This document shows positions 12,480 to 62,585 of a DNA stretch of 64,000 nt, piece after piece. Source of the stretch: Ignavibacteriota bacterium. Lineage in GTDB: Bacteria; Bacteroidota; Ignavibacteria; Palsa-1295. The notes under the pieces were generated by a model, which searched no databases, had not been told where the DNA came from, and was given only the letters and a program-made list of their open reading frames with translations. The first letter of the stretch is position 1, and every line of letters starts with the position of its first letter. Location of the stretch: the NCBI GenBank assembly GCA_003151825.1, contig PLYO01000005.1, forward strand, positions 1 to 64,000, given 5' to 3'. The position numbers were made by a program, and so were the translations under genes.

Positions 12480-13436
12480 ATGACATCTTTTATCGGCATC
12501 GAAGGTGGTGGTTCGACCACGCGAGTCTTCATTCAACGGGACGACCAGGAGCCGGAGTATTTCGAATTTCCTATTTCGCTGAAAGTAAGAAATGGAGATT
12601 TCGCTGCTTCGGCTGAAAAACTGCGCCGCATCGTAGGGGCGCATGGTAATGCGCCCAACATTCGTAATTCGCAATTCGCAATTCGTAATTTGGCGCTCGG
12701 TCTTTCCGGCATGAGCCGCGAGGAAGATCAGGAATTGCTTCGAGCCGCAATCGTAGCTCTGCCTGAATTTGCTGACGCACGAATTCATATCGAGAGCGAT
12801 GCCACGCTTACGCTAAAATCCGTGCTGGCCGAAGGCGAGGAAGGAATTCTGCTCATTGCCGGGACTGGCTCTGTCATATTTTATCAACCTTCCGGCGGCG
12901 CGGCACGGCGCATTGGTGGCTGGGGTCCGCTCCTCTCGGATGAAGGCAGCGGCTACCGCATCGGGCTTCGCGCGCTCCGGCATTATGTCAATGCTCTCGA
13001 TGGCGTTTATCCCCGCGATGCGCTGTGCGAGGCCATGGATACGCGGATAGGCGTGACGGAAATTCCCATCACGCCACGAAGCCTCACTCAACGCGCGGAA
13101 AGCGATCCCGCGTTCGTTGCCTCCTTTGCGCGAGATGCATTGGAAGCCGCCATGAATGATCCTGATCCCCCCAGTCGAAAGCATATCCAAGATCTTGTTT
13201 ACGAGGAATTGATCGACTTGACCACCATGATTTTTCCGCTTACAATACCGGGCGTGATGAGCGGCAGCAAGCCATACAATCTTTATCTCGCCGGTGGGGT
13301 AGCCCGTCAGCCCATCACCACTCGGCTACTGGAACAGGCTTACGAAGACGACGACTACTTCACGCTGCACCTCGTCGATGACCGCGCGCCGGCGTTCAAG
13401 GGGTTGGAAATTGCGCGGGGAATGTCAGAACCATGA
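12480..13436 (+). CDS. BadF/BadG/BcrA/BcrD-family ATPase, N-acetylglucosamine-kinase-like
   Basis: 318 residues. Actin-fold sugar kinase of the BadF type: the phosphate-1 loop IGIEGGGSTTRVFI at residues 4-17, phosphate-2 region LIAGTGSVIFYQ, and the diagnostic GGWGPLLSDEGSGYRIG. A C-terminal adenosine motif is seen at LYLAGGVARQP. By family knowledge it likely phosphorylates N-acetylglucosamine or a related amino sugar, perhaps for cell-wall recycling. The ATG at 12480 starts directly at the fold; an upstream TTG at 12447 would add a repeat-derived leader. Residues about 52-70 (GAHGNAPNIRNSQFAIRNL) are an insertion encoded by a palindrome plus a heptanucleotide tract, between the N-terminal helix and ALGLSGM. 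Confidence 0.85.
   Translation: MTSFIGIEGGGSTTRVFIQRDDQEPEYFEFPISLKVRNGDFAASAEKLRRIVGAHGNAPNIRNSQFAIRNLALGLSGMSREEDQELLRAAIVALPEFADARIHIESDATLTLKSVLAEGEEGILLIAGTGSVIFYQPSGGAARRIGGWGPLLSDEGSGYRIGLRALRHYVNALDGVYPRDALCEAMDTRIGVTEIPITPRSLTQRAESDPAFVASFARDALEAAMNDPDPPSRKHIQDLVYEELIDLTTMIFPLTIPGVMSGSKPYNLYLAGGVARQPITTRLLEQAYEDDDYFTLHLVDDRAPAFKGLEIARGMSEP
12634..12690. repeat. In-frame palindrome plus heptad tract inside the sugar kinase gene
   Basis: GGGCGCAT at 12637-12644 pairs with ATGCGCCC at 12649-12656. It is followed by ATTCGTA, ATTCGCA, ATTCGCA, ATTCGTA at 12660-12687. Together about 57 nt, a multiple of three, adding roughly 19 residues where related kinases have none. Confidence 0.65.
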
Positions 13437-13437
13437 G

Positions 13438-13516
13438 TTGGGGCGATTTAAGAGAGTAATTAGATTTTTATTTGAATCGAATTTACCTATCTCATGAATC
13501 TCTTAAATCGCCCCAA
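13438..13516. repeat. 18-bp perfect inverted repeat with 43-nt spacer
   Basis: TTGGGGCGATTTAAGAGA at 13438-13455 and its exact reverse complement at 13499-13516. It begins one base after the kinase stop codon. It could act as a terminator hairpin or be a small mobile palindromic unit. No gene is visible between it and 13630. Confidence 0.75.
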
Positions 13517-13630
13517 ATCAAGGTTCTGGATGTTTTTGGAACGGCACGCTTTCATCTCTCGTTTAACGCGCCGGAATTCCTCACTACCTCCTTCCGACAA
13601 TATCGCTAACCAGGCAGCTCAACCGCAATT

Positions 13631-14893
13631 ATGCCCGAAAAGAATGTTTCATCCGCCACTGAGGTGGCCCTCCCAAAGACAATCAATGGTCAGACGAACG
13701 GTGCTCTGAACCATTCGATCGACAGCTCTCCTGTTGCAGCCGGGACGATCAGTTATTCTTCGTCCGAGAAAGAAAAAAAAATCGAATTGTTCGACCAAAT
13801 GGCTGAACGCGACCACGAACAGGTCGTGCTGTGCCACGATAAACGTTCGGGCCTGCGCGCTATTATTGCCATTCACAACACCACGCTCGGCCCCGCGCTG
13901 GGCGGCTGCCGCATGTGGACCTACGCCAGCGATTTCGATGCGCTGAACGATGTCCTCCGCCTTTCCCGAGGCATGACCTACAAAGCCGCCGTCGCAGGAC
14001 TGAATTTAGGCGGCGGAAAAGCCGTCATCATTGGCGATCCGAGGAAAGACAAGAGCGAGGCGATGTTCCGCGCCTTTGGGCGCTATGTCGAGGGACTTGG
14101 CGGGCGATATATTACCGCGGAAGATGTGGGAACTTCGCTCCATGAGATGGTTTGGATTCGCGCCGAAACGAAATACGTAACCGGCATTCCCGAGGAACTT
14201 GGCGGTTCGGGCGATCCTTCGCCGGTTACCGCGCGCGGCACATACGTGGGCATTAAGGCATGTGCAGCGGTGAAGTTTGGCAACGATTCGCTTGCGGGAA
14301 AGCACGTCGTGATTCAAGGCGCGGGACACGTAGCCGCGTCGCTCGCAAAATATCTGACGGATGAAGGCGCGAAAGTCACGATTGCCGATATTTATTCGGA
14401 AAAAGCGAACGAAGTGGCGCGCGCAACGGGCGCAAGGGTCGTGAAGCCCGAGAACGTTTATGGCATCGAGTGTGATGTGTTCGCTCCTGCGGCGCTTGGT
14501 GCGGTCATTAACGATGAAACGATTCCCCAGCTACAATGCGAGATCGTCGCAGGTCCGGCGAACAACCAGCTTGCCGATGAAGAGCGGCATGCGCGGGCGC
14601 TGAAAGATCGCGGTATCCTTTTCGCGCCCGACTATGTGATTAATGCCGGCGGACTCATCAATGTTGCGAACGAGCTGGAAGGCTATTCGCAGTCTCGCGC
14701 GCTTAAGCAAGCCGATGGCATATACGATGTGTTGAAGAAGATCCTCCTGCTCGCAAAGGAAAAGAATATCACAACGGTCGAAGCCTCGAACCACGTCGCC
14801 GAAGAACGTCTCGCCGCCATCGGCGCGACGAAACGCATCTACGCCTCCTCCTCCAATTTTAGCGGGCGGTTTGGGGAGTATTGGAAGCGGTAG
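13631..14893 (+). CDS. ldh: Leucine dehydrogenase (Glu/Leu/Phe/Val dehydrogenase family)
   Basis: 420 residues. NAD-dependent oxidative deamination of branched-chain amino acids to 2-oxo acids in the cytosol. Visible family features: LGPALGGCRMW substrate loop, the catalytic-lysine motif NLGGGKAVIIGDP (Lys near residue 129), Asp in ITAEDVGTS, and the Rossmann NAD site VVIQGAGHVAASLA. NNQLADE and INAGGLINV close the active site. The core starts at about residue 50 (KIELFDQMAERDHEQ). The first 45 residues are an extra Ser/Thr-rich tail absent from typical LeuDH, so translation might start later at 13799. Probably monocistronic. Confidence 0.9.
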   Translation: MPEKNVSSATEVALPKTINGQTNGALNHSIDSSPVAAGTISYSSSEKEKKIELFDQMAERDHEQVVLCHDKRSGLRAIIAIHNTTLGPALGGCRMWTYASDFDALNDVLRLSRGMTYKAAVAGLNLGGGKAVIIGDPRKDKSEAMFRAFGRYVEGLGGRYITAEDVGTSLHEMVWIRAETKYVTGIPEELGGSGDPSPVTARGTYVGIKACAAVKFGNDSLAGKHVVIQGAGHVAASLAKYLTDEGAKVTIADIYSEKANEVARATGARVVKPENVYGIECDVFAPAALGAVINDETIPQLQCEIVAGPANNQLADEERHARALKDRGILFAPDYVINAGGLINVANELEGYSQSRALKQADGIYDVLKKILLLAKEKNITTVEASNHVAEERLAAIGATKRIYASSSNFSGRFGEYWKR

Positions 14894-14929
14894 GGCGCGT
14901 CATGTAACGCCAAGTTTCAATCCGGCGAA

Positions 14930-15715
14930 TTAAGGTTTGACAAAAAATCCCAACGGCATAATTTGCTGTTTCGAGAAGATGCCAATGTGCTTACCTTTGG
15001 GTGAGATCACTACATCCCAGTGGGTGCGATAAATATAGAGATTGTAGGAGTTAGTTACCACGTTAGGAATATTCGCTATTAGTTGATTGGGACGAATGGT
15101 AAATCCTGCCGTATCAGGATTTGTCCATCCGAATCCATGTATGCCAAGGAAATCCCCAGCGGAAACAACGATGCTATCTCCGGGAACAGAATGTTGATAT
15201 CTAATCGTGCAGCCAAGAGCAGCGGAAATGGTATCTGGAAGAGTGATCCTTCCAAAATTCGGTGCGATTGATGCAGTCGATGCAAACGACTCCCCTTCAA
15301 AATTTTGGTAAGAGAATGTCATGCTATCGTCAGCTCCGATGGCGACGGAATCGTTTTTATAGATACCTGGATAGCCCCCTTCCCCGGAGTCTCCCATCCA
15401 TGACAACTCATCTCCATTGATATTTGCGTTACCTACTTCGACAGGGTATCCATTGACTTGAAATGCCATCGCTCCATAAGGGAGACTCCAAAAAGGCTTT
15501 GGCTGCGAGCCGTCAGAATCCTGATCTCGAAAAAACGCAATGCCTACATCGAATTGTCGGCCGTTTTCGTACTTAGATAAGTCTATACCATCATTAGGAG
15601 CGACTGCAATCATCGGATCGAATAAACCAGGAGCCAAATTAGGCGCAGTGCTGCTGTGGCATCCTGCGGCACCCGCCACGAAAAAGACCGCAATCCATAA
15701 AATTGACCGTTTCAT
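14930..15715 (-). CDS. Lipoprotein of unknown function
   Basis: 261 residues from ATG 15715, chosen because it directly precedes a lipoprotein signal (MKRSILWIAVFFVAGAAGC, lipid-modified Cys at 19). The mature part is beta-rich and acidic, with no family I recognise (DLSKYENGRQFDVGIAFFRD; YNLYIYRTHWDVVISPKGKH). Likely anchored in the outer or inner membrane facing the periplasm or surface. A start at 15772 would place 19 extra residues before the signal and overlap the promoter. A near-perfect -7 element ends 5 nt before this ATG, so the mRNA may be leaderless. Confidence 0.75.
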   Translation of the reverse strand: MKRSILWIAVFFVAGAAGCHSSTAPNLAPGLFDPMIAVAPNDGIDLSKYENGRQFDVGIAFFRDQDSDGSQPKPFWSLPYGAMAFQVNGYPVEVGNANINGDELSWMGDSGEGGYPGIYKNDSVAIGADDSMTFSYQNFEGESFASTASIAPNFGRITLPDTISAALGCTIRYQHSVPGDSIVVSAGDFLGIHGFGWTNPDTAGFTIRPNQLIANIPNVVTNSYNLYIYRTHWDVVISPKGKHIGIFSKQQIMPLGFFVKP

Positions 15716-15720
15716 TACCG

Positions 15721-15728
15721 CAAATATA
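15721..15728 (-). promoter_or_regulatory. -7 element TATATTTG, 5 nt before the start codon
   Basis: Minus-strand TATATTTG matches TAnnTTTG exactly, within AATTGTGTTATATTTGCGG. The 5-nt distance to ATG 15715 means transcription would begin at or near the start codon. Confidence 0.55.
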
Positions 15729-15769
15729 ACACAATTTCGACCCGAGCGTGCAAATTTCAATTCCCTAAA

Positions 15770-15800
15770 CAAAAAGAGCGGGCTGAAGCCCGCTCTACAC
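15770..15800 (-). terminator. Terminator of the YfhO-like gene, built from a GTGTAG palindrome
   Basis: Minus strand: GTGTAG, then AGAGCGGGCT paired with AGCCCGCTCT (15775-15796) and a TTTTTG tail. The arms match half of the paired palindrome at 28248-28322, so a dispersed repeat seems to serve as terminator. Confidence 0.75.
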
Positions 15801-15817
15801 TTGTTAACAATAGTGCT

Positions 15818-18544
15818 TTAGGCTTTTGGCAGCAGGATTTCCACTTCGGGCCGTTTTTTTCGTTTTGAATAGGAAAAGCTCGTAATGCCGATACCAAATG
15901 CGATGAGTGTCAACGCATTCGTCACGAGCGAGATGGCACGGCCCGTGACATATTTGGGGTCGTAATAGGTAAGCTTGATTTCATGCGTACCCTGCGGCGC
16001 GACGATGGCGCGGAAGGCATAATCGGCTCGATAAATCGGCGTGGGTTTGCCATCGACAGTTGCCGTCCAATCGGGATACCATGCGTCGGACATAAAAATG
16101 AGTCGGTTCCCGTTAGTTTTTGTGTGGAACGTAATGTCCTGATCTTTGTAATCCATCGTGAGGGTTTCCGAAGCGGTATCGATCGGGGTGGTTGCGAGCG
16201 CGGGCATGTCCTTCGGAGCTTCATCGAAATACATAACATCGCGCGGGTTGAATGTTCCATCGTGCATCGCATGAAGAATATCGAGTTTCGGTTTTACCTC
16301 ATAGCGATACGTAAAGAACGCGCGTGGTAGCACGTCCAAATTTTGGTAAACTCTAAGGTTTGCTACACCCTTATCAATTTGAACCTGTTCTTTTGATTCA
16401 AAGACGGGGGCAATCCTTCCGGAAGGAATCTGACCGGGATAAATGAGATACTTCGTATTGAGTAGATTCCACATGAATGGATTCCGAATTCCGTTGCCCT
16501 GATAGTCTCCTGTTTCATCAACGACATCCTGAAATTCTCGCATTTTTGCAGCATGGTATCCGCCTGCTGTTTGGATTCCATAGCCAACAAGTGCATTTGA
16601 CGGGCTCTGTTCGGTCAGATCGGTCACGCGGTATAGGGATTTATCCTGCTTGATATATTGAATGTAGTCATGATCCTGAAAATTACTTTGATAATCTTCT
16701 CTCGACTCGATTTCCATGGGCCGCGTATCCACGCGCCAGAGATCGATCGCCGTGAGTGCGACGAGACCTACCGCAACAATCAGAGGCGAGAGCTTGCGCT
16801 TGAGGAAGTAATACGCAAGCAGACAAGCCACGGTCGCAAGCAGCGCGCAGATGAGCGCGTCGTTCGCGGCGGTGGACGCAATGAAATCCTTGAGGGTGTC
16901 GAAATATTGTGGAACTTTCCCGCGCTTCATGGCCGATTGAATCCCGCTCGTGACCGACGACGTGATGACGCCGCGGAACACGATCGAGATCGCGAGAAAC
17001 GCGCCCGAAGCATAGAGCGCGTATTTGAAATATTTTTGCAGCCACGCATCGTCACTGGCGCTTTTCATTTTCCACACACGCAAAATTTCTTCGAGTGCGA
17101 GCGCCGCGAGAATGGGAAACGCAAGCTGCATGAGGACGAGCGCCATCATCGGCGCGCGAAAGGAATTGAAAAACGGGAAGTAGTTGAACATGGGCCGGAA
17201 CAGGATCGGCCAGTTCCCACCGAACGAAAGCAGAATCGCGAACATCGTGATGATCGTAAGTGGCGGGACGAGCCGATCCCGCTTCCAAAGCGTAAAAATC
17301 CCAATGATGGCAAGTACAAAGACGACGATGCCCGTATAATTCGCGGCGTCTGTGCCGTTCATTTGCCCCCAATAGGTCGGGATGCGCTCGCCCTCGGGGA
17401 TATTCGGATCGCCCCCGGTATAAGGCATTTTGCCGAAACCATAGTATCCGGGAATGATAAAAGTAATTATTTCCTGCGGGGAGAAGGACCAGGATGTCGC
17501 ATAATCCCAGTTGAGGCCACCGGACGAGGTGACCGCATGGTTCGCGGACATCTTGCTCATTGCATCGGCACTCTGCGCTTCTTCAATTGGCGACTTGCCA
17601 CGAATCGAATATGGTTTGTAGTCGAACATGGTTATGTATTGATCTGCGGACATGCAGAAGGCAAGTCCTCCCATGAGGATCGTGAGCACGCCTGAGCGAA
17701 CGAGCGGCATAAGATGATGCGACCTCGGATGCTCCGACTTCCGCGTTAGCTCGATGACGAGCGAGGTAATAAAATAAACCAGCACGGCAAGCGCAATATA
17801 AAAGATCATCTGCATGTGGGTCGATTCAAGCAGGAGATGAATGGCCGTCGCCAGCACCGCGCACCACAAGACGATCCTTTGCCAGTCGAGCTTTGTCGCG
17901 CGCAGCCGTTCGATCGCCATTAAAATATAGGGCACGGTCATCACCGCGTAGATTTTCGTGTCGTGGCCGATCATGACGTAGGTGATAATCCACGTCGAAA
18001 ACATCGCGCTGAAGGCCGCAAAGAACGCGACAATGCGCGAAGTATTTCGCGTCACCCGCATCAGGAGATACATTCCCAATCCGAAGATAAAGTAATGCCA
18101 GAGATGCGGCGTAAGGTCGGGATTCGGCAGGATCGCGACCGGGATCGAGCGAACGAGATTGAAAATTTCATGCACCAGATCGTACGTCCGCGCGCCCGTG
18201 ATGACGAGCCCCGAGAAGGCCGGCATCCCAGTAAAGATATTCGGGATCCACTGTGGGGGTGAGTAGCCCTGTGCCTGCGCTGCGGTGAGGAACGGCTGCA
18301 TCTCATCCCATGCGACATTATCGCCGGCGTTGAAGACGTGTGTCGAATCGAGCACGCCCCGAAAAAAAACGAGGAGCGAGAGAAAAATGAGAATAATCGC
18401 GACCGGGTCGCGCCATTTCTCCGGAATATAATGCGCGAGCGACCGCGAGGCGACGTCCTGCTCGCGCTGCATCGCGCCGATATGAGGGTGTTTATTTTTT
18501 GGAAGCGGCGCCTTTGCCGCCGGAGTTTTGGGTTGTGTAGCCAT
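15818..18544 (-). CDS. YfhO-like polytopic membrane protein (putative glycosyltransferase)
   Basis: 908 residues. A short cytosolic Pro/Lys-rich N terminus is followed by about a dozen hydrophobic helices (for example PVAIILIFLSLLVFF near 45-60). The C terminus carries a large soluble domain and a final helix (AISLVTNALTLIAFGIGI). The YfhO-type C-terminal region is recognisable: ATVDGKPTPIYRADYAFRAI, then PQGTHEIKLTYYDPKYV. YfhO-family proteins resemble GT-C glycosyltransferases that use lipid-linked sugars; the substrate here is unknown. It ends in a strong terminator and is transcribed away from the Mla operon. Confidence 0.85.
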   Translation of the reverse strand: MATQPKTPAAKAPLPKNKHPHIGAMQREQDVASRSLAHYIPEKWRDPVAIILIFLSLLVFFRGVLDSTHVFNAGDNVAWDEMQPFLTAAQAQGYSPPQWIPNIFTGMPAFSGLVITGARTYDLVHEIFNLVRSIPVAILPNPDLTPHLWHYFIFGLGMYLLMRVTRNTSRIVAFFAAFSAMFSTWIITYVMIGHDTKIYAVMTVPYILMAIERLRATKLDWQRIVLWCAVLATAIHLLLESTHMQMIFYIALAVLVYFITSLVIELTRKSEHPRSHHLMPLVRSGVLTILMGGLAFCMSADQYITMFDYKPYSIRGKSPIEEAQSADAMSKMSANHAVTSSGGLNWDYATSWSFSPQEIITFIIPGYYGFGKMPYTGGDPNIPEGERIPTYWGQMNGTDAANYTGIVVFVLAIIGIFTLWKRDRLVPPLTIITMFAILLSFGGNWPILFRPMFNYFPFFNSFRAPMMALVLMQLAFPILAALALEEILRVWKMKSASDDAWLQKYFKYALYASGAFLAISIVFRGVITSSVTSGIQSAMKRGKVPQYFDTLKDFIASTAANDALICALLATVACLLAYYFLKRKLSPLIVAVGLVALTAIDLWRVDTRPMEIESREDYQSNFQDHDYIQYIKQDKSLYRVTDLTEQSPSNALVGYGIQTAGGYHAAKMREFQDVVDETGDYQGNGIRNPFMWNLLNTKYLIYPGQIPSGRIAPVFESKEQVQIDKGVANLRVYQNLDVLPRAFFTYRYEVKPKLDILHAMHDGTFNPRDVMYFDEAPKDMPALATTPIDTASETLTMDYKDQDITFHTKTNGNRLIFMSDAWYPDWTATVDGKPTPIYRADYAFRAIVAPQGTHEIKLTYYDPKYVTGRAISLVTNALTLIAFGIGITSFSYSKRKKRPEVEILLPKA

Positions 18545-18949: not shown

Positions 18950-18954
18950 CAATA

Positions 18955-20162: not shown

Positions 20163-20168
20163 AAACGA

Positions 20169-23561: not shown

Positions 23562-24303
23562 AAAAGCGATAGAAAAAGAAGGCGCGCGGCGCATGATCGA
23601 TCATGCGCCGCGCGATGGCGCAAAAGATCCGCGTGAGCTGCCAAAGGGCGAATCGCTCGATGCAAGAAAAGCGCGGTTCCAAAAAATATTTGTGAAGCTC
23701 CACCAAGAATATCTCGATGCAAGATGCGCGCTCGAATTTAGCAATGCGTATGAGTTGCTCGCCGCCACGATTCTCTCCGCGCAATGCACCGATAAGCGCG
23801 TGAATATGGTCATGCCGGAATTTCGGAAAGCATTTCCGAATCCGAAATCGCTTGCGAACGCCGAACCTGCCGACATCGAAGATGTCATTAAATCCACCGG
23901 CTTTTATCATCAAAAGGCAAAGTCGCTGAAGTCGATGGCAAGCGACATTATGGATAAATTCGGCGGCAAAGTTCCTGCTACGATGGATGAACTTACCACG
24001 CTGCGCGGCGTCGGGCGCAAGACGGCGAATGTCATACTTGGCGACGCATTCGGCAAAGCCGAGGGCATTGCCGTAGATACGCATGTCACGCGGCTTTCAG
24101 GACGATTGGGACTGACAAAAAATTCCGATCCACAAAAAATCGAGCAGGACTTGATGCAATTGGCTAGCCCAAAGCAATGGACGCTCACGGCGCACGTCCT
24201 CATCCTTCATGGCCGCGCGATTTGCGACGCGCGGAAGCCGAAATGCTCGCAGTGCATTGTGTCTGAACTTTGCCCGTCATCGGGAATGAAAGGAAGCGTG
24301 TAA
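23554..24303 (+). CDS. nth: Endonuclease III
   Basis: 249 residues. A DNA glycosylase/AP lyase for oxidised pyrimidines. Helix-hairpin-helix LRGVGRKTANVIL with the catalytic Lys (near 155), catalytic Asp in AVDTHVTR (near 174) and the 4Fe-4S cluster CDARKPKCSQCIVSELC (about residues 225-241). The start overlaps the glycosyltransferase gene by 8 nt. Typical Nth has about 210 residues; the extra length is N-terminal, where residues about 10-20 (ARRMIDHAPRD) come from a perfect 30-nt palindrome read in frame. A remnant of this gene's 3' end lies at 24771-24852. Confidence 0.93.
   Translation: MAKKAIEKEGARRMIDHAPRDGAKDPRELPKGESLDARKARFQKIFVKLHQEYLDARCALEFSNAYELLAATILSAQCTDKRVNMVMPEFRKAFPNPKSLANAEPADIEDVIKSTGFYHQKAKSLKSMASDIMDKFGGKVPATMDELTTLRGVGRKTANVILGDAFGKAEGIAVDTHVTRLSGRLGLTKNSDPQKIEQDLMQLASPKQWTLTAHVLILHGRAICDARKPKCSQCIVSELCPSSGMKGSV
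23584..23613. repeat. 30-nt perfect palindrome within nth
   Basis: The left half GCGCGGCGCATGATC is followed directly by its reverse complement. Flanked by GAAG on the left and GATGGCGC on the right, it resembles the in-frame palindrome of ribH at 62289. Confidence 0.85.
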
Positions 24304-28247: not shown

Positions 28248-28322
28248 AGTGTAGCCCGGGCTTTAGCCCGGTGCTTTGGATGATCGATGTTCCTGGCTGC
28301 GGGCTGAAGCCCGCGCCACACT
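28248..28322. repeat. Paired GTGTAG palindrome between gapA and lgt, coding for the Lgt C terminus
   Basis: Left palindrome TGTAGCCCGGGCTTTAGCCC at about 28250-28269 and right palindrome GCGGGCTGAAGCCCGC at about 28299-28314 followed by GCCACACT. The outer ends are themselves inverted. On the minus strand it supplies the last ~19 codons and the TAA stop of lgt. Confidence 0.75.
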
Positions 28323-33201: not shown

Positions 33202-33221
33202 GAGGAAAACTCAAATTCAAT

Positions 33222-33366
33222 GTCATCCTGAGCGAAGCAAATCGGAGCGAAGTGGAGATTTGCGTAGTCGAAGGATCTCTTGTAATTTAACTGATAGCCA
33301 GACTGCACGAGATCCTTCGACTCCGTTCATCCTCCCTTCGGTCGGATGAACTCCGCTCAGGATGAC
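33222..33366. repeat. Inverted-repeat (MITE-like) element, copy B
   Basis: Begins GTCATCCTGAGCGAAG and ends CTCCGCTCAGGATGAC. Internal GTCGAAGGATCTC and GAGATCCTTCGAC are inverted. It lies inside the efflux operon between the adaptor and pump genes. Confidence 0.8.
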
Positions 33367-33392
33367 AAGTAAAATTTAACGTAGCAAAGTTC

Positions 33393-38896: not shown

Positions 38897-38988
38897 TGTA
38901 GCCGTGCCCTTCAGGGCACGGCGAATTCTCTTACATGCCTAATTCTAAATTTCCGCTCCACGACCGTGGCTTAAAAGCCACGGCTACA
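38897..38988. repeat. Paired GTGTAG palindrome upstream of the heptose operon
   Basis: Left palindrome (38897-38921) starts TGTAGCCGTGCCC; right palindrome (38964-38988) ends GCCACGGCTACA. Same architecture as 57881-57962 and 28248-28322. It occupies the whole gap between the HIT gene stop and the hddA start. Confidence 0.8.
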
Positions 38989-39542: not shown

Positions 39543-39698
39543 ATGTGGTTTCTCATTTCGTTTTTTATTCTCGTTTGGTTTATCGGCATTATTACCTTCG
39601 GAGCTACGGCTTATTGGGTACACGCGGTGCTTATGGCTGCCGTTGTGCTCGGCCTTTGGAATATGTTCCGAAAATATCAGGTAAGACGTAAGAAGTAA
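39543..39698 (+). CDS. Small one- or two-helix membrane protein, lmo0937/DUF5670-like
   Basis: 51 residues: MWFLISFFILVWFIGIITFG followed by a short turn and a second hydrophobic segment (WVHAVLMAAVVLGLWNMF) and a basic end. Size and pattern (two helices, W-I-G-I near the centre, final basic tail) resemble the tiny lmo0937/DUF5670 membrane proteins, often stress-linked. The last residues (VRRKK) and stop lie in a heptanucleotide repeat tract, so the natural C terminus may have been altered. Confidence 0.55.
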   Translation: MWFLISFFILVWFIGIITFGATAYWVHAVLMAAVVLGLWNMFRKYQVRRKK

Positions 39699-39736
39699 GA
39701 GTTAAGAAGTAAGAGGTAAGAAGTAAGAGGTAAGAA
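39681..39736. repeat. Heptanucleotide tandem tract, eight units
   Basis: GTAAGAC, GTAAGAA, GTAAGAG, TTAAGAA, GTAAGAG, GTAAGAA, GTAAGAG, GTAAGAA in perfect 7-nt register, followed by ATGGG as at the other tracts. Confidence 0.85.
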
Positions 39737-43154: not shown

Positions 43155-43180
43155 GTCATTCCCGCGAACGCGGGAATCCA
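43155..43180. repeat. Palindromic repeat of the ATTCCCGCG type
   Basis: ATTCCCGCG (43158-43166) and CGCGGGAAT (43169-43177) around AA, preceded by CTTGTC and followed by CCAAG. This GTCATTCCCGCGAACGCGGG form is a repeat type seen in many bacteria. Confidence 0.8.
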
Positions 43181-46700: not shown

Positions 46701-47037
46701 CACGAGCGTGGGCGTTCAGTCGTTTACCCTCATACCGAGTTGCGGCGACCCGACGCTAACGGAAACTCTGGCTCATGGCTCCGTGCCGTTTTCGATTTTA
46801 AGTATCATTCCCAATCCGGCGAGCGGAGAAATTACGGTCGTGGTCGCCGCGGCGGGCGACCTCCACGCGGTGGAGTATGAGATGTTCGATGCGCTGGGGC
46901 GGGAACAGGACGTGCGCAGCACGTCCCTACGGTTGGGTGTTGCGCTGGACGTTACGAAGGTGCCATCGGGAATATACTTTCTGCGGGTGTCGGAGGGCGG
47001 GTATGTGGAGTCGCGGAGCGTGGTGATCGAGCGGTGA
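43753..47037 (+). CDS. Giant secreted T9SS cargo protein with choice-of-anchor D repeats
   Basis: 1094 residues. Signal region (APVIGCMLFPCLSRAQYGP), then an N-terminal part (about 30-310) with Asp-box-like repeats (YYTKDGATWIKS, STDFGASWSSV) and several Ig-like domains between about 310 and 880 of the choice-of-anchor type (FGPVKMCANFAARDTSIVF; TFKYRFVPPDSGAFTGEARL; FTNAGCKSITIDSV). A cohesin-like segment (PVYASSASSVAEIGSIALRL) precedes a type A sorting domain (SIIPNPASGEITVVV, SGIYFLRVSEGG, SVVIER). Cell-surface or released. Two identical palindromes are read in frame, giving DVRSTSL near residues 646 and 1054. Confidence 0.85.
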   Translation: MGILKLHYRTLLKILMTAPVIGCMLFPCLSRAQYGPNWKSIGSIQSVGYVQCIYFFDTLHGVAAADGIYYTKDGATWIKSITPSGFIFVNEIRCFNGRLYAAVTGPDYLISSDSGVTWSYSGLNVANTTDLYQDGTGAIRALSAPAWQFARVDNLHYIETLDSGTLRVSSNGGALWNVSKPDSIFSDAPWENAYGCYGDTCSKVFLALLVDTLYRSTDFGASWSSVCSTPGNVTFMGGNDLEGAAGEAYSAQAGLSGTERIADYGTNWTNCGSLADAWASSRIFVFGPMGENVVVPTGHELWMTTNGGDGTLGDPVAIPDTLQIQPGTTLGSPCGSTAIPILLQSGVNDLRMKVNITGDSLHEFSITNPASTFILNSSGSDTAWILYTPHSLPSSSTLTLSFQNSWKCSDWAETRTIIVTSPPSAFAIAPAPLNGGCKIVSDSGFISIDSCQSLVITSVQVAPSIANRLQFQYSLPDTIRNGYHNTLPFTFDPRDTAANGTVPIELTGYYFGTSVRFDTTFNVYVAAIPGLPNLTSSLSSVAFGPVKMCANFAARDTSIVFTNSGCAPDTITQITVTGMGFTGGNNTLPIIVQPGDSVTFKYRFVPPDSGAFTGEARLNVSSMGLSENPVVKLNGKAVQGYGVLDVRSTSLQSGSFSFCAGDTTVFDTISNKGCDTLVISNIVFTGDAAFSLTSPLHDTLLLPYDSAIIQFYFAPRTKGAHAATLSFHSQNIVNDSGHNTTITLAGIGIADRVALALPVTTLALPQVIAGCGADTAAISFTNAGCKSITIDSVVGLSAPFSSSPVSNQQLDTGHTATFKIYYAPIVAELKSGVARIYYRGADSTEHDTTIAISAAAIEPPSVSVYLKPGQLSDTNQGLVSIPVYASSASSVAEIGSIALRLDMRTDLLTPESITSPIAGAGTAPLQMDANGASITLTLPGNFSISSDTLITTVACRVYVTDTTKTAISLTSASSSGAANCLSLTSVGVQSFTLIPSCGDPTLTETLAHGSVPFSILSIIPNPASGEITVVVAAAGDLHAVEYEMFDALGREQDVRSTSLRLGVALDVTKVPSGIYFLRVSEGGYVESRSVVIER
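45684..45702. repeat. In-frame palindrome GGACGTGC family, copy 1
   Basis: GGACGTGCGCAGCACGTCC followed by CTAC, read as DVRSTSL within an Ig-like linker of the giant cargo protein. Confidence 0.8.
46908..46926. repeat. In-frame palindrome GGACGTGC family, copy 2
   Basis: Identical to the copy at 45684 including the trailing CTAC, in the same frame, within the T9SS sorting domain (between GREQ and LGVALDV). Confidence 0.8.
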
Positions 47038-47078: not shown

Positions 47079-47293
47079 GTAATGGCTCAGTTCGGAATTC
47101 ACATTCGGTTATTATGTCATTCTGAGCGGAGCAATTCGACCGAAGGGAGAATTGCGGAGTCGAAGAATCTCGTGCAGGCCATCCGACTGCCAAATCACTC
47201 GCGATCCTTCGACTCCGTTCTTGCTCCTTCGTCGCAAGGACTCCGCTCAGGATGACAGGTTATGAAATTAAAGTTGAATTGACCACTACCAAT
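47079..47293. repeat. Inverted-repeat (MITE-like) element, copy C
   Basis: The core 47116-47256 begins GTCATTCTGAGCGGAG and ends CTCCGCTCAGGATGAC. Flanks TAATGGCTCAGTTC and GAATTGACCACTACC extend the inversion, as for copy A. No gene is seen in 47038-47602. Confidence 0.75.
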
Positions 47294-47308: not shown

Positions 47309-47535
47309 ATTTTTGTCGTATATTGGTACTAAGTTTGATAGGCACCCATTCGACAAGCTGAGGGCAGGCTCTATGGGCAATTATGAAGTATGAATTATGA
47401 AGTATGAAATGGGAAAAGGACGAGGTTTTCGGTATGAAAGAAAATGCATAAGTTCATGAAAAAGATTATGAAAATTAACCGTGAAAACACATTTTGAGCA
47501 CCTATTGCCTTGAGACAACTATCGAAATTGGCTTG
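47309..47535. repeat. Interspersed element, copy 2
   Basis: Matches 12196-12400 in two ordered blocks: TTGTCGTATATT near 47314 with TTTGAT and GCACC; and ATGAAAATTAA plus CGTGAAAACACATTTTGAGC near 47483. It ends about 70 nt before the next start codon. Confidence 0.6.
47380..47407. repeat. Heptanucleotide tandem tract, four units
   Basis: ATTATGA, AGTATGA, ATTATGA, AGTATGA, then AATGGGA; nested in the interspersed element as at 12241. Confidence 0.75.
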
Positions 47536-49685: not shown

Positions 49686-49727
49686 GCCGCATGATGAGCA
49701 TCGTGGGCGATGCGGCTCATGCGGTGC
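49686..49727 (+). terminator. Imperfect long hairpin after the DUF2795 gene
   Basis: GCCGCATGATGAGCATCG (49686 onward) pairs with CGATGCGGCTCATGCGG in the second half, with one or two bulges. No T tract, so it is either a weak terminator or another palindromic repeat akin to those in nth and ribH. Confidence 0.45.
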
Positions 49728-54255: not shown

Positions 54256-54289
54256 GTGTAGCGCCGGAAATATATTTCCGGTACTACAC
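54256..54289. terminator. GTGTAG-CTACAC palindrome between EF-G2 and GH57
   Basis: GTGTAG and CTACAC enclose a perfect 18-nt palindrome CCGGAAATATATTTCCGG (54264-54281). A T-rich GGTTTGTTTG follows, so it may end the EF-G transcript. Same GTGTAG-headed family as at 15795 and 28250. Confidence 0.65.
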
Positions 54290-57864: not shown

Positions 57865-58649
57865 TGGATAGCGAAGGCAGTGTAGCCGTGACCTTTAGGT
57901 CACGGTCTGAAAATAGGGATCGTCTTGTTAATTCACACCGTGACCTAAAGGTCACGGCTACAACTCGCAAGCCACTTTCCTGGAAAACCGAGCGCGCGCA
58001 TTGGAAACGCGGAATTTTTTCCATTATGGGCGTCGATGAGGCTGGTCGCGGACCGCTTGCTGGGCCTGTCGTGGCTGCGGCAGTGTATTTCGATTACAAT
58101 ACCTGTAAGAATTTCCCGAAGTCCCTGCGCGACTTGAACGACTCGAAGCAACTTAAGGAAGAAGAACGCGAGCGATTTTACACCTTGATTGTAAAACATG
58201 CTCGAAGCTGGGGCGTGGGAATTGTTTCGCGCGAAGCGATCGACCGCATCAATATCCTGCAAGCGACGATGCAGGCCATGACGCTTGCCGTCGAGCAGGC
58301 GGCTCAAAAACTTGCGGTGGAAGAGATTGTGCCGGAATTACTGCTCGTCGATGGTAACTATTTCAGGACTTCACTGCCTTATGAATACCGTACCGTCGTG
58401 GATGGCGACGCAAAATCCCCGCTCATTGCCGCAGCCTCGGTCATCGCAAAAGTAACGCGCGACCGCATCATGTATAAACTACATGAGCTTTATCCGCAAT
58501 ATAATTTTGCGTCGAACAAAGGATATAGCGTCCCGGAGCATTTGCGGGCATTGAAGGAACATGGCCCCTGCCCCGAGCACCGCCGCTCGTTCCGTCCCGA
58601 GAGGTTTCAGGGGGAATTGGGTTTCGAGCTACTCACGAAAGAAGGATAA
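57864..58649 (+). CDS. rnhB: Ribonuclease HII
   Basis: 261 residues. Cleaves RNA in RNA-DNA hybrids and at single ribonucleotides. Catalytic residues: DEAGRGPLAGPVVAA with Asp and Glu near 57-58, LLVDGNYF and the VVDGDAKSPLIAAASVIAKV stretch for the others. The ATG overlaps the stop of the previous gene. Residues about 6-33 are encoded by a pair of palindromes; the native-like N terminus starts at TERAHWKRGIFSIMGVDEAG, so typical RNase HII has about 45 fewer residues. A start within that region is possible but no ATG exists until 58026. Confidence 0.92.
   Translation: MDSEGSVAVTFRSRSENRDRLVNSHRDLKVTATTRKPLSWKTERAHWKRGIFSIMGVDEAGRGPLAGPVVAAAVYFDYNTCKNFPKSLRDLNDSKQLKEEERERFYTLIVKHARSWGVGIVSREAIDRINILQATMQAMTLAVEQAAQKLAVEEIVPELLLVDGNYFRTSLPYEYRTVVDGDAKSPLIAAASVIAKVTRDRIMYKLHELYPQYNFASNKGYSVPEHLRALKEHGPCPEHRRSFRPERFQGELGFELLTKEG
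57881..57962. repeat. Paired GTGTAG palindrome within the rnhB 5' end
   Basis: Two 25-nt arms (57881-57905 starting TGTAGCCGTGACC; 57938-57962 ending GGTCACGGCTACA) are exact reverse complements of each other, and each is itself a near-palindrome. The 32-nt spacer is TCTGAAAATAGGG.... All lie in the open frame of rnhB. Confidence 0.85.
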
Positions 58650-58671
58650 CGGAAAACGCTCTCTCTTACTT

Positions 58672-60765
58672 TCATGGAGCGACGAACACTCCTCGCGTCT
58701 CGACGGCGCCGCTTTCTAATCTCAGTTGAACAAAAAGGTTTCCATTGGCGGAATTCGGAAGATTTATTTCCATTGTGGCATTCCCTCCGGAAGGCACATT
58801 CGCGCGCGCGAGCGGCCTTCCCAGCGCATCGTAAATAGTTAGCGTCGCTCCGCTCGTGAAATGCTGATAATTTAATTGCAGCCGATGCGGGTCGATCTCC
58901 GCGACACTCCATACCGGCATCCTGCCGGTGCGGAGGAGTTGCGAAAGGATGGCTGTGCCACATCCGATGGGAGCACATACCGTTGCACTCACGCCAGAGT
59001 TCCCCGAATTTCCATCCAAAATAAGACACTGTTTCGGCACGGTCGAAAGCCGTATGGAATCGAACGAGACCGTCATGCACGAATCCGAAACCGGGAGAAG
59101 CTGGAACAACGCATAGCCAAGCTGGGTCCGATTCACAATCTCCGCGCTGTCGAGAGTGACGAAAGCCTCGCCGATGGAATCGAGATCCGAATCGTCCTCC
59201 CGAATGGAGTCTGAATAGAAGCCCGCGAATTGCATATTCGATGTATCGTAGCCGACCATAAAGCTTAAGGTTCCAGCCGCGAATGTGCCGCCCTGAACGA
59301 TATTGAGCGGCACGGCCACTTCACCGCCGATCGTGTCGGTCCTTCCACCAACGGCTTCGAGCGTCACGGCGACCGGATTGACCACCGTCACGAACGTGGA
59401 ATCGGCGGCTTGACTGCCCTGACCGTTCGTAATGGTAAGTTTGATTTCGAAGACGCCCGCCGAGTCGTAACAGACCATTCCCGGATTTGCCGTCATCACG
59501 AGCGGCGCTTGGGAACCCACTAACTCCCACGCATAGGAAACAGCGCCACTCACGGTATCCGAGGGCGAGATACAATCCCCAACGCACACCGTGGGAACCG
59601 AAGCAATCTTCACCGATGGGAGCAGGCAGGAATGCGATGGCGCGTTCATAAAGGTATAGGGGATGTTCGGCAGGCCAGAATTGCATCGTCCGCTTTGGAG
59701 CACCACAGACTGGGAATTAAAATTGCATGCGACGCCCGCGCTGTTCGGGGCAGCGATGACGCCAACATAGGTTCGGCCCGAACAGGCGACATAGAGCTTG
59801 CCATCCGGACCGGGCATGATGGCCATGCATGCATCTCCAAATTCGACTTCATACTTGCTCGACAAAATTGTATTCACCACGTTCGAGGTTATGTCCAATT
59901 GGAGGAGGTCGTTCGCCAGATACTCGGAAACATAGAGCATGGAGCCGTCGGGTGAAAAGGAGACCCCGTAGGGATTTGTAAACCCACCAAGCGTAATCGC
60001 GTTGCTTACGATTCCGGTCGTGGCATCGAAATCGAGCAGTTCGACGTTTCCGGAGAAGTTCAATGCCTGCGCGAGGCGCGTTCCATCTGCGGATGACACG
60101 AGATACCCGATTGTTTCATAGGGGTCTCCCGTTTGCACGACTCCAACGTTCGAAACGACCGGCGTCGGATTTAGCCCGGTATCGTTCAGCTGCCATACAG
60201 AGAATGCGTTGGAGTTAAACTGATGGGCTAGAATCCATGTGTTGCAGCTATTGGGCTGCCGCACCGCGGTAAGTTTTTCCGTAGCGCTGTCGAGCAGAAG
60301 AACATTTTTCGTCGTAACATCTCCCATGCCGCCGTCGAGCGTCATATCGACAATGCTGTAATTGACGCCTTTGTTAGTAGGTCCGACATAACCGCCTTGA
60401 TCGCTCGTAAACACATAATATCGATTGGGAGACGCGGGATCGCCGACGATCAACGCGGATTGCGTGCTGCTGAAGTTCCCAAGGAGTCCCAGGCCGTTGG
60501 GCATCGCCAGATCGTTTCGGTTCCAGATGGCGCTGCCATCGGTATAAAACAGGATTTGGCCGGTATTATCGTCGCAAATCGAAGCGCAACCTTCGAGGGT
60601 ATTAATCTGTCCACCCGGAACGGAAACGGGCGTTCCGCTATTGAAATCGATTCCCGCGTAACCTCCGAAGTGCCACACGTTGAACTCCTTCTGCGCGAGC
60701 GAAACTTGTGGAACACACGCGGTTGCCGTCAGCGTAAGAACGAGAATGCGAAAAAATATCTTCAT
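58672..60765 (-). CDS. Secreted T9SS cargo protein with propeller, PKD and cohesin-like domains
   Basis: 697 residues. Signal region (ILVLTLTATACVPQVSLAQ). Residues about 25-390 start with FNVWHFGGYAGIDFNSGTPV, a form common in gliding-motility-associated surface proteins, and read as a beta-propeller. A PKD domain follows (about 395-475: CVGDCISPSDTVSGAVSYAW). A cohesin-like segment lies near 480-600 (AAGTLSFMVGYDTSNMQFAG). The last 70 residues resemble a T9SS sorting domain (ATLTIYDALGRPLARANVPS; GAVETRGVFVAP). A small palindrome ACCGGCATCCTGCCGGT at 58913-58929 is read in frame as RTGRMPV ahead of it. Convergent with rnhB. Confidence 0.85.
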   Translation of the reverse strand: MKIFFRILVLTLTATACVPQVSLAQKEFNVWHFGGYAGIDFNSGTPVSVPGGQINTLEGCASICDDNTGQILFYTDGSAIWNRNDLAMPNGLGLLGNFSSTQSALIVGDPASPNRYYVFTSDQGGYVGPTNKGVNYSIVDMTLDGGMGDVTTKNVLLLDSATEKLTAVRQPNSCNTWILAHQFNSNAFSVWQLNDTGLNPTPVVSNVGVVQTGDPYETIGYLVSSADGTRLAQALNFSGNVELLDFDATTGIVSNAITLGGFTNPYGVSFSPDGSMLYVSEYLANDLLQLDITSNVVNTILSSKYEVEFGDACMAIMPGPDGKLYVACSGRTYVGVIAAPNSAGVACNFNSQSVVLQSGRCNSGLPNIPYTFMNAPSHSCLLPSVKIASVPTVCVGDCISPSDTVSGAVSYAWELVGSQAPLVMTANPGMVCYDSAGVFEIKLTITNGQGSQAADSTFVTVVNPVAVTLEAVGGRTDTIGGEVAVPLNIVQGGTFAAGTLSFMVGYDTSNMQFAGFYSDSIREDDSDLDSIGEAFVTLDSAEIVNRTQLGYALFQLLPVSDSCMTVSFDSIRLSTVPKQCLILDGNSGNSGVSATVCAPIGCGTAILSQLLRTGRMPVWSVAEIDPHRLQLNYQHFTSGATLTIYDALGRPLARANVPSGGNATMEINLPNSANGNLFVQLRLESGAVETRGVFVAP
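58913..58929. repeat. In-frame palindrome ACCGGCA-TCC-TGCCGGT
   Basis: 7-bp arms around a 3-nt loop, read on the minus strand as TGRMPV between the cohesin-like part and the sorting domain of the cargo protein. Confidence 0.5.
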
Positions 60766-60888
60766 AGCTCACAGCCCGCGAATAAGCTTAATCGAAAACC
60801 TTGAGCATAAGGGTGTAGTTCGGCAAGCCGGATTCCATCAGCGGCGCTTCGTATGCATGATTGAAACTTCCGGCACGAACCGGTAGCG

Positions 60889-61314
60889 ATGCCGCGTTTT
60901 GAAGAGATGTCGTTCGAAATGGATATTGGCGCGAGTGAGGGGCGGAAGCCGGCGAGGCTTTCACGCGAGGAGCTTGCGAAGATGGGCGAGGAACATGCGG
61001 CAAAGCTCGTCGCTTCGCTGGGATACCGCATCGTGAAGCGGAATTTCCGCTATGGCAAGGTGGGCGAAATCGATATCGTGGCCTACGATGGGGAGTGCCT
61101 CGTTTTTATCGAGGTGAAAGCGCGTCAGGATTACAGCCACGGCACGCCGGAAGCCTCGATCGATGCACGAAAGCAGGCGCAGCTAAAGCGCGTGGCGAGA
61201 ATGTATTATTATGTGAACGCGATTGCGGAAGCTGTCTGCCGCTTCGATGTGATCGCAGTCGATATTTTTGGCGGGAAGGTCGATATTCGTCATCATAAAA
61301 ACGCATTTTACTAA
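60889..61314 (+). CDS. YraN family endonuclease-like protein (UPF0102)
   Basis: 141 residues. The family's restriction-endonuclease-like core is intact: GEEHAAKLVASLGYRIVKRN, GEIDIVAYDGECLVFIEVKA (the D...E-x-K site) and KQAQLKRVARMYY. Often located next to rnhB, as here after one intervening gene. A DNA-repair or recombination role is suspected for the family but not settled. ATG 60889 gives an extra 20-residue N-terminal tail; a later start is possible. Confidence 0.88.
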   Translation: MPRFEEMSFEMDIGASEGRKPARLSREELAKMGEEHAAKLVASLGYRIVKRNFRYGKVGEIDIVAYDGECLVFIEVKARQDYSHGTPEASIDARKQAQLKRVARMYYYVNAIAEAVCRFDVIAVDIFGGKVDIRHHKNAFY

Positions 61315-61318
61315 AGCC

Positions 61319-61990
61319 ATGACGGAACTAATCGGGCTTTCGGGCATCACCGTTCTTACGCAAGACGGATCGCGGCGCATTTTAGATGGTTTCGATCTTC
61401 ATATCGAAAAAGGATCGCTGGTGCTGCTACTTGGCGCAGGTGGATCGGGCAAGACGACTCTCTTCAAGCTGCTCGCGGGCGAGCAAACGCCGGAACGCGG
61501 TGAAGTTTTGGTTGGTGGCATATCGGTGCCGTCGCTTAGCGGCGGGAAGCTCGCCCGGTATCGCCGCTCGCTCGGAATTGTGATGCAGGACGCGCCGCTC
61601 CTCGAAAACCGAAGCGCGGAGGAGCAAATCATGCTGCCACTTGAAATCGAGGGAATGAGCGCCGAGCGCCGACACGAGCGCGCTCAAGCAGCGATCGAGC
61701 GATTCGGGCTTTCGGACGCGCGGAGAAAGCTTCCCAAGGCGCTTTCGATGAGCGAACGGCAACGCGTGGCTATTGCGCGAGCAGTCGTTCGGGAACCGCT
61801 GGTGTTGTTGGCCGACGAACCCGCCGCGCATTTGGATGCGAACGATTCGAAGGAAATCGCCAGACTTTTATTGCATGAAAACCTTCGCGGCATGACTGTT
61901 CTTATTGGAACGAGCGACGAGCATTTCGCTTCGTATTTCCCGGAAACGCCAGTCCGACGAATGGAATCCGGAGTAGGGATTAATAATTGA
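61319..61990 (+). CDS. FtsE-like ABC ATPase with altered signature motif
   Basis: 223 residues from ATG 61319, 4 nt after the YraN stop. Walker A GAGGSGKTTL (near 42), Q-loop IVMQDAPLLENRSAEEQI and Walker B LVLLADEPAAHLD are intact. The signature is KALSMSERQRVAIARAV, with S-M-S-E in place of the usual S-G-G-E/Q. The H-loop His appears replaced (IGTSDEHFAS). Length and GLSGIT start fit FtsE/LolD-type ATPases. It may be the partner of the FtsX at 48190-49047, although unlinked. Reduced ATPase activity is possible. Confidence 0.8.
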   Translation: MTELIGLSGITVLTQDGSRRILDGFDLHIEKGSLVLLLGAGGSGKTTLFKLLAGEQTPERGEVLVGGISVPSLSGGKLARYRRSLGIVMQDAPLLENRSAEEQIMLPLEIEGMSAERRHERAQAAIERFGLSDARRKLPKALSMSERQRVAIARAVVREPLVLLADEPAAHLDANDSKEIARLLLHENLRGMTVLIGTSDEHFASYFPETPVRRMESGVGINN

Positions 61991-62048
61991 CCTATGCTTT
62001 ACGGAGCGGAGTTGCGCTCGACGCTGTTGGCTTCCAAATACCAAGAAC

Positions 62049-62585
62049 TTGCCAGATAATTTCACACGGATAAAAGGAACGCTCGATGGGCGGGAACTCC
62101 GCATCGGCATTGTGGTCAGCCGCTGGAATCGGGAGATTACGGACGATCTGCTGAGTGGCGCGCTTCGCGCGCTTGCGGCGTGCGAGGTGCCATCCGAGAA
62201 CATCACGATTCTCGAAGTGCCGGGCGCGCTGGAAATTCCGATTGCGGCCGGCAAGCTGGCTTCGATGCAGCATGACCGATCACGCGCCGCGCATGGCCGA
62301 CCATGCGCGATGGACGCCCTCGTCGCCATTGGCTGCGTGATAAAAGGCGAGACGGCGCATTTCGAGCACGTCAGCAGGCTCGCGCTGGATGGCATTGCTC
62401 GCGTATCGCGCAAATATGCAATTCCCGTAACCTGCGGCATTCTAACCACGTATGACGTGGGTCAAGCACGAGCGCGCTCCGGTCCGGACGATGCCAATGT
62501 CGGCTCTCAGGCCGCGCTCGCTGCCGTCGAGACCGCGAATGCACTCCGATCCAATGCTCTCGAAAACGAAGACATTATATTCTAA
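62049..62585 (+). CDS. ribH: 6,7-dimethyl-8-ribityllumazine synthase
   Basis: 178 residues. Condenses the ribityl-pyrimidine with dihydroxybutanone phosphate to lumazine in riboflavin synthesis. Motifs: RIGIVVSRWNREITDDLLSG, VPGALEIPIAAGKLA, and ALVAIGCVIKGETAHFEHVS with catalytic His. A normal subunit has about 155 residues. The excess includes residues about 76-88 (HDRSRAAHGRPCA), encoded by a palindromic insertion exactly between the helix of KLASMQ and the strand of MDALVAIG. TTG is the only upstream start in frame. Its stop is 9 nt before the next gene. Confidence 0.92.
   Translation: MPDNFTRIKGTLDGRELRIGIVVSRWNREITDDLLSGALRALAACEVPSENITILEVPGALEIPIAAGKLASMQHDRSRAAHGRPCAMDALVAIGCVIKGETAHFEHVSRLALDGIARVSRKYAIPVTCGILTTYDVGQARARSGPDDANVGSQAALAAVETANALRSNALENEDIIF
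62273..62313. repeat. In-frame palindromic insertion in ribH
   Basis: GCGCATGG (62289-62296) and CCATGCGC (62301-62308) form a hairpin inside a unit TGACCGATCACGCGCCGCGC...GATGG. The GATCACGCGCCGCGC part resembles GATCATGCGCCGCGC in the nth palindrome, suggesting one family. Confidence 0.75.

What the first reader, a model, noticed from the sequence alone, without database searches (positions are those of the whole stretch)
12634..62313. Several families of short palindromes inserted in frame in conserved genes
Eight genes (sugar kinase, nth, lgt, mtnN, giant T9SS cargo twice, rnhB, T9SS cargo, ribH) each carry a palindromic unit of roughly 17-80 nt in the reading frame, adding short peptides at loops or termini where homologues have none. 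At least four palindrome families are involved, and members of the same families also lie between genes. Rickettsia palindromic elements are the best-known parallel; to my knowledge none has been described for this lineage. The pattern implies an active or recently active small mobile element that tolerates or creates new peptide loops.
Basis: partly seen in the sequence, partly recalled or inferred. Interest (0 to 1): 0.85.

Follow-up and report, generated by a model that had tools for sequence, protein, structure and literature searches.

The report
Tiny DNA palindromes inserted inside genes
An uncultured Kapabacteria-like bacterium carries several families of very short hairpin-forming repeats, some of which have landed inside protein genes without breaking them, so that some enzymes gain short extra peptides that close relatives lack; this resembles the known REP and Rickettsia elements but includes an 18-letter repeat with no known mover.

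Summary
Ten palindromes in seven of the eight named genes belong to six dispersed families. The eighth (T9SS cargo, 58913-58929) has no family: one copy in 847 kb, as many as its reversed control. Clean empty sites exist for nth (+21 nt) and ribH (+39 nt, two tandem units). The rnhB pair is also in two congeners. mtnN, kinase and lgt copies sit in loops or tails that vary in length anyway. In the 847 kb sample (24% of the genome) 46 genes hold 61 copies of eight families. Of the 24 that could be aligned to a relative, 21 are extra residues against at least one; control windows 5 of 1227. Window families E, Q, K (and mostly P) are GTAG-tagged REPs. REP-associated transposase genes are present, one flanked by the lgt family. 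IL (about 18 bp, 103 sites here, 0-8 in six congeners) and J carry no GTAG tag and have no identified transposase. IL also nests in other repeats (14 of 48, random positions 3.3%). Best reading: REP-type miniature elements spread as hairpins; insertions that keep the frame and are tolerated survive. The phenomenon is known (Rickettsia; intragenic REPs, PMC3733652); lineage, number of families and IL look new.

The parts
12633..12656 (+). Family K REP (GTAG + GGGCGCATGGTAATGCGCCC) in frame in a BcrAD/BadF-type ATPase (sugar-kinase-like) gene, followed by a 7-nt repeat tract encoding NIRNSQFAIRN
   Evidence: 4 copies in 847 kb, 3 with exact GTAG; loop of variable length in congeners
23583..23614 (+). 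Family IL palindrome (GCATGATCGATCATGC core) in frame at codons 10-21 of nth (endonuclease III), +21 nt
   Evidence: absent in G005 and G003; G004 has an unrelated longer stretch there
28299..28319 (-). Family P REP in the C-terminal tail of lgt (preceded by GTGG, not GTAG); a 4-mismatch inverse partner at 28251-28271
   Evidence: family P flanks a REP-associated transposase gene on contig C8
29652..29674 (+). Family J hairpin (CCCCCTCCTTTGCAAGGAGGGGG, with CAGGGGGTGGT tail following) in frame in mtnN (SPSFARRG), in a length-variable loop
45684..45706 (-). Family E GTAG-REP in frame (LDVRSTS) in a 1094-aa T9SS-secreted protein
46908..46930 (-). Second family E GTAG-REP in frame (QDVRSTS), in the C-terminal sorting domain of the same protein; a diverged E-like sequence encodes the same DVRSTS in a homologue of G004
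57882..57961 (+). Family Q REP pair in inverted orientation (GTAGCCGTGACC...GGTCACGGCTAC) read in frame at the N-terminus of RNase HII (rnhB)
   Evidence: same pair with the same 52-nt spacing in G001 and three tandem 54-nt copies in G004
62270..62306 (+). Two tandem IL units in frame in ribH (lumazine synthase), +39 nt; opposite a 12-residue gap in the alignment to 3mk3
58913..58929 (+). Palindrome ACCGGCATCCTGCCGGT in a T9SS cargo gene; not a member of any family found here
15778..15798 (-). Intergenic family P REP with GTAG
38902..38921 (+). Intergenic family Q palindrome, 2 mismatches
43159..43176 (+). Intergenic family A palindrome, 1 mismatch
49698..49713 (.). Intergenic IL copy, 1 mismatch
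54256..54289 (+). Intergenic palindrome U (GTGTAG...CTACAC); one 7-mismatch relative lies beside the transposase gene on contig C9
18652..18799 (.). Intergenic long composite palindrome, family B (others about 33221-33370 and 47115-47260); family B is almost never inside genes (1 of 36)
9699..9717 (+). Family E copy, 1 mismatch, outside predicted genes

Best explanation
These are REP-type miniature palindromic elements of several independent families. Most likely they are copied and inserted as single-stranded hairpins by HUH (Y1) transposases: REP-associated TnpA/RAYT for the GTAG-tagged families E, Q, O, K and P, and possibly IS200-like TnpA for others such as M. They land all over the genome. 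Insertions that break a gene are purged, so what remains inside genes is mostly short, stop-free, in frame and at tolerant loops or termini. Shown: families, copy numbers, GTAG tag, inverted pairs, transposase genes flanked by P and by M, sites empty in relatives, intact frames. Inferred: transposition itself, near-neutrality of the peptides, and which enzyme moves E, Q, O and K. Not known: what moves IL and J, which lack the GTAG tag.
For: Family E: 76 hits in the genome, 0 in the reversed control; of 60 copies read, 52 have exact GTAG before the hairpin and all 22 close pairs are inverted, 37-81 nt apart. GTAG also before Q 11 of 11, O 8 of 13, K 3 of 4. Transposase genes over the NCBIfam cut-off for REP-associated tyrosine transposase: C8 (82.9 against 80 bits) and C38 (88.8); C9 is below it (69.1). 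The C8 gene has family P on both sides, one C43 gene has M pairs on both sides. In-gene copies are extra residues: net gap of at least 4 aa in at least one relative for 21 of the 24 alignable copies (15 of 18 genes), in all relatives for 19 of 24; copy-by-relative pairs 47 of 59, control windows 5 of 1227. All 17 repeat families with more than two copies are rarer in genes than the coding fraction 0.852 (p at most 0.012): IL 21 of 48, J 18 of 30, R 6 of 14, E 6 of 26, long family B 1 of 36. No palindrome-family copy sat between coding flanks in shifted frames. Recent spread: IL 103 sites against 0,8,0,0,1,6 in six congeners; E 76 against 40,26,13,0,0,8; J 33 against 3,6,1,2,0,2.
Against: No transposase gene with E, Q, O, K, IL or J copies close by was found among the 6 Y1 loci of this genome, nor E, Q, K or J among 27 relatives' loci; one search listed more relatives' hits than were fetched. 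Two relatives' genes have an IL copy on one side only. J and IL carry no GTAG (0 of 30, 0 of 48). Three of 24 alignable copies are not extra residues: one O copy in a protein 3 aa shorter than its relative's, one 1-mismatch IL copy with no gap (possibly chance), and the rnhB pair, which G001 shares. 37 of 61 in-gene copies, all of family E among them, had no relative aligned at 40% identity. The patterns come from this genome, so counts in congeners may be low. Open frames alone do not explain in-gene abundance: family M was open in 5.8 of 6 frames between genes yet 1 of 14 is in genes.
Confidence: 0.72

Rival explanations
1. Replication slippage or template switching at hairpins creates new palindromes on the spot, without any transposase; the repeats look alike because hairpin-prone sequences converge.
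For: IL lies within or beside other repeats in 14 of 48 cases; tandem in-frame growth occurs (three 54-nt units in G004 rnhB; four J units in C9_90031).
Against: Identical 16- to 24-mers recur at unrelated sites with 0 reversed-control hits; copy numbers are species-specific. Local templating should not produce the same sequence at unrelated sites.
Confidence: 0.08
2. The palindromes are RNA-level signals (terminators, mRNA-stability hairpins) kept for regulation; the in-gene copies are overlaps with gene ends or wrong start sites.
For: More copies lie outside predicted genes than inside for every family of more than one copy except J; lgt and rnhB copies lie at gene ends.
Against: Most alignable in-gene copies are internal, with protein alignable to a relative on both sides and coding signal on both flanks.
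Confidence: 0.1
3. IL and J are satellites of one enzyme that acts in trans, for example the C38 REP-associated transposase, which has no palindrome detected nearby.
For: C38 gene scores 88.8 bits as REP-associated transposase; no palindrome or family copy found in its flanks.
Against: No sequence link between this gene and IL or J was found; PMC6006769 (passages read) says there generally appears to be a single tnpA-REP gene for each REP type.
Confidence: 0.15

Closest known systems
GTAG-tagged REPs / REPINs with RAYT (TnpA-REP) transposases
   Same: Short hairpin after a GTAG tetranucleotide, inverted pairs, RAYT genes flanked by the repeats, mostly intergenic, some inside genes (PMC3733652 abstract, passages, sections 6-7; PMC8266576 and PMC6006769 passages)
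   Different: Phyla listed for GTAG repeats in PMC3733652 do not include Bacteroidetes or Chlorobi; several such families in one genome; the RAYT of E, Q, O and K not identified
Rickettsia palindromic elements (RPE) and other protein-coding palindromes (Wolbachia, M. jannaschii)
   Same: Palindromes translated in frame within conserved genes (PMC2229807 passages; Ogata 2000, 2002, 2005 and Suyama 2005 seen only in its reference list)
   Different: PMC2229807 gives 105-146 bp for RPE; RPE-4 and RPE-6 are short CGTC repeats by PMC3733652. Here units of about 18-37 nt in unrelated families, J and IL in all three frames
CGTC-tagged REPs (RPE-4, RPE-6, dRS3)
   Same: Family A here (TGTCATTCCCGCG...CGGGAATCCA) fits the tag variant TGTC and the CCA tail described in PMC3733652 section 6 (figure not seen); 27 of 30 copies follow GTCA
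   Different: Family A is not one of the window's in-gene families; 6 of 30 copies are in predicted genes, some in a doubtful frame
REPs that lie inside other palindromes (A. variabilis GTAG-15, T. roseum GTAG-23, H. neapolitanus CGTC-1)
   Same: A short palindrome repeatedly found within larger palindromes (PMC3733652 section 7)
   Different: IL sits in several unrelated host repeats and also in many genes

Membership tests
GTAG-REP (families E, Q, O, K) | GTAG immediately 5' of a palindrome, several dispersed copies | tested here: met
   E 52 of 60; Q 11 of 11, O 8 of 13, K 3 of 4
GTAG-REP (families E, Q, O, K) | Cognate RAYT gene flanked by the same repeats | tested here: inconclusive
   Not found at the 6 own Y1 loci; E, Q, K not at 27 relatives' loci either, but one search listed more loci than were fetched and the assembly is not closed
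GTAG-REP (family P, lgt copy) | RAYT gene flanked by the same repeats | tested here: met
   C8 gene 48384-49010 with family P about 48353 and 49013; 82.9 bits against cut-off 80. The lgt copy itself has GTGG
REPIN | Two REPs in inverted orientation at short distance | tested here: met
   E: 22 of 22 pairs inverted, 37-81 nt; Q in rnhB
GTAG-REP (families IL and J) | GTAG next to the palindrome | tested here: not met
   IL 0 of 48, J 0 of 30
CGTC-REP (families IL and J) | CGTC (or TGTC, CCTC) next to the palindrome | tested here: inconclusive
   Not among the three commonest preceding tetranucleotides; not counted separately
Rickettsia-type protein-coding palindromes | In-frame insertion in conserved genes, absent in relatives | tested here: met
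   21 of 24 alignable in-gene copies, controls 5 of 1227
Rickettsia-type protein-coding palindromes | Peptide is made and tolerated by the protein | not testable with these tools
   Needs proteomics or enzyme assay
Rickettsia palindromic element family proper | Sequence similarity to known RPE families | not tested
   RPE sequences were not obtained in any call

The most novel reading that the evidence does not exclude
IL is a new kind of ultra-short mobile palindrome (about 18 bp, six codons, mostly stop-free in all frames) that burst to about 100 copies in one species, prefers other repeats as landing sites, and writes short cassettes of about six residues (RMIDHA, ASPTM or RIVGDA type, depending on frame) into proteins, without a GTAG tag or a recognisable transposase of its own.
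Probability: 0.3. Interest if true: 0.78.

Novelty: new variant of a known kind. Interest (0 to 1): 0.56.

Why it matters
It gives a non-Proteobacterial genus in which related species with empty sites let one measure how often tiny mobile hairpins add peptides to working enzymes. It also raises the question of how an 18-bp palindrome with no GTAG tag and no known transposase multiplies.

Tried and rejected
Synteny of the window with congeners was tried first; in the stretches fetched only the nth-GT2 pair kept its order widely, so genes were compared one by one. A test that IL always sits at the exact centre of flanking inverted repeats failed (2 of 43 at the threshold; shuffled flanks mean 0.57, at most 4); overlap with other repeat families was used instead. 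A link 'more stop-free frames, more copies in genes' is not supported (family M). The cargo palindrome was rejected as a family. Rfam gave no hit in the window. E in the giant proteins could not be judged against homologues. Structure prediction was not used.

Errors found and mended: the fuzzy scans used a best-match mode that skips weaker copies lying before a better one, so their counts are too low. I recounted with an exact sliding comparison, and the copy counts in this report come from those; the conclusions did not change. One added IL copy (C43_119481, 1 mismatch) goes against the reading and is counted. The in-gene E copies outside the sample come alone. The mtnN alignment had some loci on the wrong strand and was redone. 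The G010 row for ribH is out of place, because its locus is cut at a contig end; searches align it independently.

Full report
What was checked. The window is contig C15:1-64000 of a 3.59 Mb, 51-contig genome, 98.4% complete with 6.6% contamination. By name it is Kapabacteria-like: the exact 23-nt family E sequence, which among 61 genomes searched is frequent only in this genus, occurs in 11 stretches of records labelled Candidatus Kapaibacterium, uncultured Ignavibacteriae and Bacteroidetes. I read 846,709 bases of the genome and 20 further stretches around family E copies.

Families. Over-represented words give more than ten palindrome families and several 7-nt repeat arrays. The in-gene palindromes of the window belong to six: K (kinase), IL (nth, ribH), P (lgt), J (mtnN), E (giant, twice), Q (rnhB). 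Copies in the 847 kb sample, with reversed-control hits: IL 48 (0), J 30 (0), E 26 (0), Q 11 (0), P 5 (0), K 4 (0). The cargo palindrome has 1 (1). A looser I-type pattern gave 24 (2).

Genes. Eight families (E, IL, J, R, Q, O, P, K) give 151 hits; 61 are inside 46 predicted genes. Against a coding fraction of 0.852, all 17 families with more than two copies are under-represented in genes, but to very different degrees: J 18 of 30, IL 21 of 48, R 6 of 14, O 5 of 13, Q 3 of 11, E 6 of 26, A 6 of 30, D 2 of 28, B 1 of 36.

Empty sites. For 24 of the 61 in-gene copies (18 genes) a relative of at least 40% identity aligned across the site. In 21 of 24 (15 of 18 genes) at least one relative lacks 4 or more residues there; in 19 of 24 every aligned relative does. 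By pairs it is 47 of 59, against 5 of 1227 random windows of the same proteins. Copies in one gene are not independent. The three exceptions are the rnhB pair, one O copy, and one 1-mismatch IL copy without gap. The clear single IL insertions amount to 5 (five), 6 (three) or 7 (two) residues; nth against G004 is -6 because G004 has its own longer stretch. nth and ribH are the cleanest window cases. For mtnN the result is mixed: G003 and G001 are shorter, G004 equal, six relatives longer, one of them with a long tandem array at the same place. The kinase loop and lgt tail vary among congeners.

Frames. In genes J occurs in phases 0, 1, 2 in 2, 5, 11 copies; IL in 8, 10, 3. E in the sample is 6 of 6 in one phase (DVRSTS/DVLRTS type); five more in-gene copies in the extra stretches are 3 in that phase and 2 in another. 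No palindrome-family copy lay between coding flanks in shifted frames; two copies in one 7-nt array did, at what looks like the junction of two genes. The test needs coding signal on both sides and so misses many sites.

Movers. Six Y1 transposase genes exist here. C8 and C38 pass the NCBIfam cut-off for REP-associated tyrosine transposase, C9 falls below it; the two C43 genes pass as IS200/IS605 transposase; C30 is below that cut-off. C8 has family P on both sides, one C43 gene has M on both sides, the other a further palindrome pair. C9 has a U-like palindrome (7 of 34 mismatches to the window copy) on one side and an unlike palindrome on the other. Of 33 such loci from this and related genomes, my motif screen found the frame in 21; 12 of these are flanked on both sides by matching palindromes, against 2 of 150 control genes. 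The two C43 proteins show DHIH or DHVH, WQ and Y.LNQ..HH, close to the motifs that PMC6006769 (passages read) gives for subclass 1.2, which it lists as without REPs. E, Q, O, K, IL and J were not found close to the six genes here (an O copy lies 1.1 kb from the C9 gene), so their mover is open.

Recency. E: 76 here, 40, 26, 13, 0, 0, 8 in six congeners, 0 in six other family members, at most 1 in each of 48 class members. J: 33 against 3, 6, 1, 2, 0, 2, and 0 in the other 54 (lower bounds). IL: 103 sites of a degenerate 16-nt pattern against 0, 8, 0, 0, 1, 6. The patterns were taken from this genome, which favours it. The rnhB pair is older: it is in G001 with the same 52-nt spacing, and G004 has three tandem 54-nt units.

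Nesting. Of 48 IL copies, 14 lie within 30 nt of other repeat families, against 164 of 5000 random positions; among intergenic ones 11 of 27 against 103 of 766 (Fisher p = 0.0006). By eye some more sit between the hairpin and tail of J. PMC3733652 (section 7) already describes REPs within palindromes in three species.

Literature. Intragenic GTAG and CGTC REPs, many in repair genes, and Rickettsia elements in frame are described in PMC3733652 (abstract, passages, sections 6 and 7 read) and PMC2229807 (passages). No paper in the library holds both 'Kapabacteria' and 'repetitive extragenic palindromic', and searches listed none on in-frame REPs in Bacteroidota; this covers only the held library and those terms.

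Judgement. The pattern is genuine and larger than reported, and its kind is known. Its unusual parts are the number of families, the IL element without GTAG tag or known mover, and the ready set of empty sites in sister species.

Noticed in passing
window 39681-39736, 47381-47408; kinase tract after 12656: 7-nt tandem arrays (GTAAGAR, ATGAAKT, AATTACG and an AGTGCTA-like one) are dispersed through the genome (16-22 hits each in 847 kb; the GTAAGA type also has 6 reversed-control hits); some lie in predicted genes.
   Followed up: partly
window 12305-12361 and 47450-47506: A conserved sequence of about 60 nt or more (core ATTAACCGTGAAAACACATTTTGA): 8 copies in 847 kb within 5 mismatches, reversed control 0. 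Of 6 looked at, 5 have a same-strand predicted gene starting 132-319 nt downstream. No Rfam match in the window.
   Followed up: partly
L001, L002, L159, L161, L162, L166, L167, L174, L181, L182, L184: IS200-like TnpA genes flanked on both sides by matching palindromes, although the subclass that the C43 pair (L001, L002) resembles by motif is listed as without REPs in PMC6006769.
   Followed up: partly
G004 rnhB (L109): Three in-frame tandem 54-nt units, each carrying a family Q palindrome, at the N-terminus of RNase HII.
   Followed up: yes
G005 mtnN (L104): A long in-frame tandem array (ESERNE-type repeat) in the same loop where the window gene has a J palindrome.
   Followed up: no
G000:C11:282966-283667: A second rnhB, 78% identical and with one TGA, in the same assembly; may be contamination from a congener.
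   Followed up: no
C11:103986-104005: An O palindrome in a protein that is 3 residues shorter than its relative's: replacement rather than insertion.
   Followed up: no
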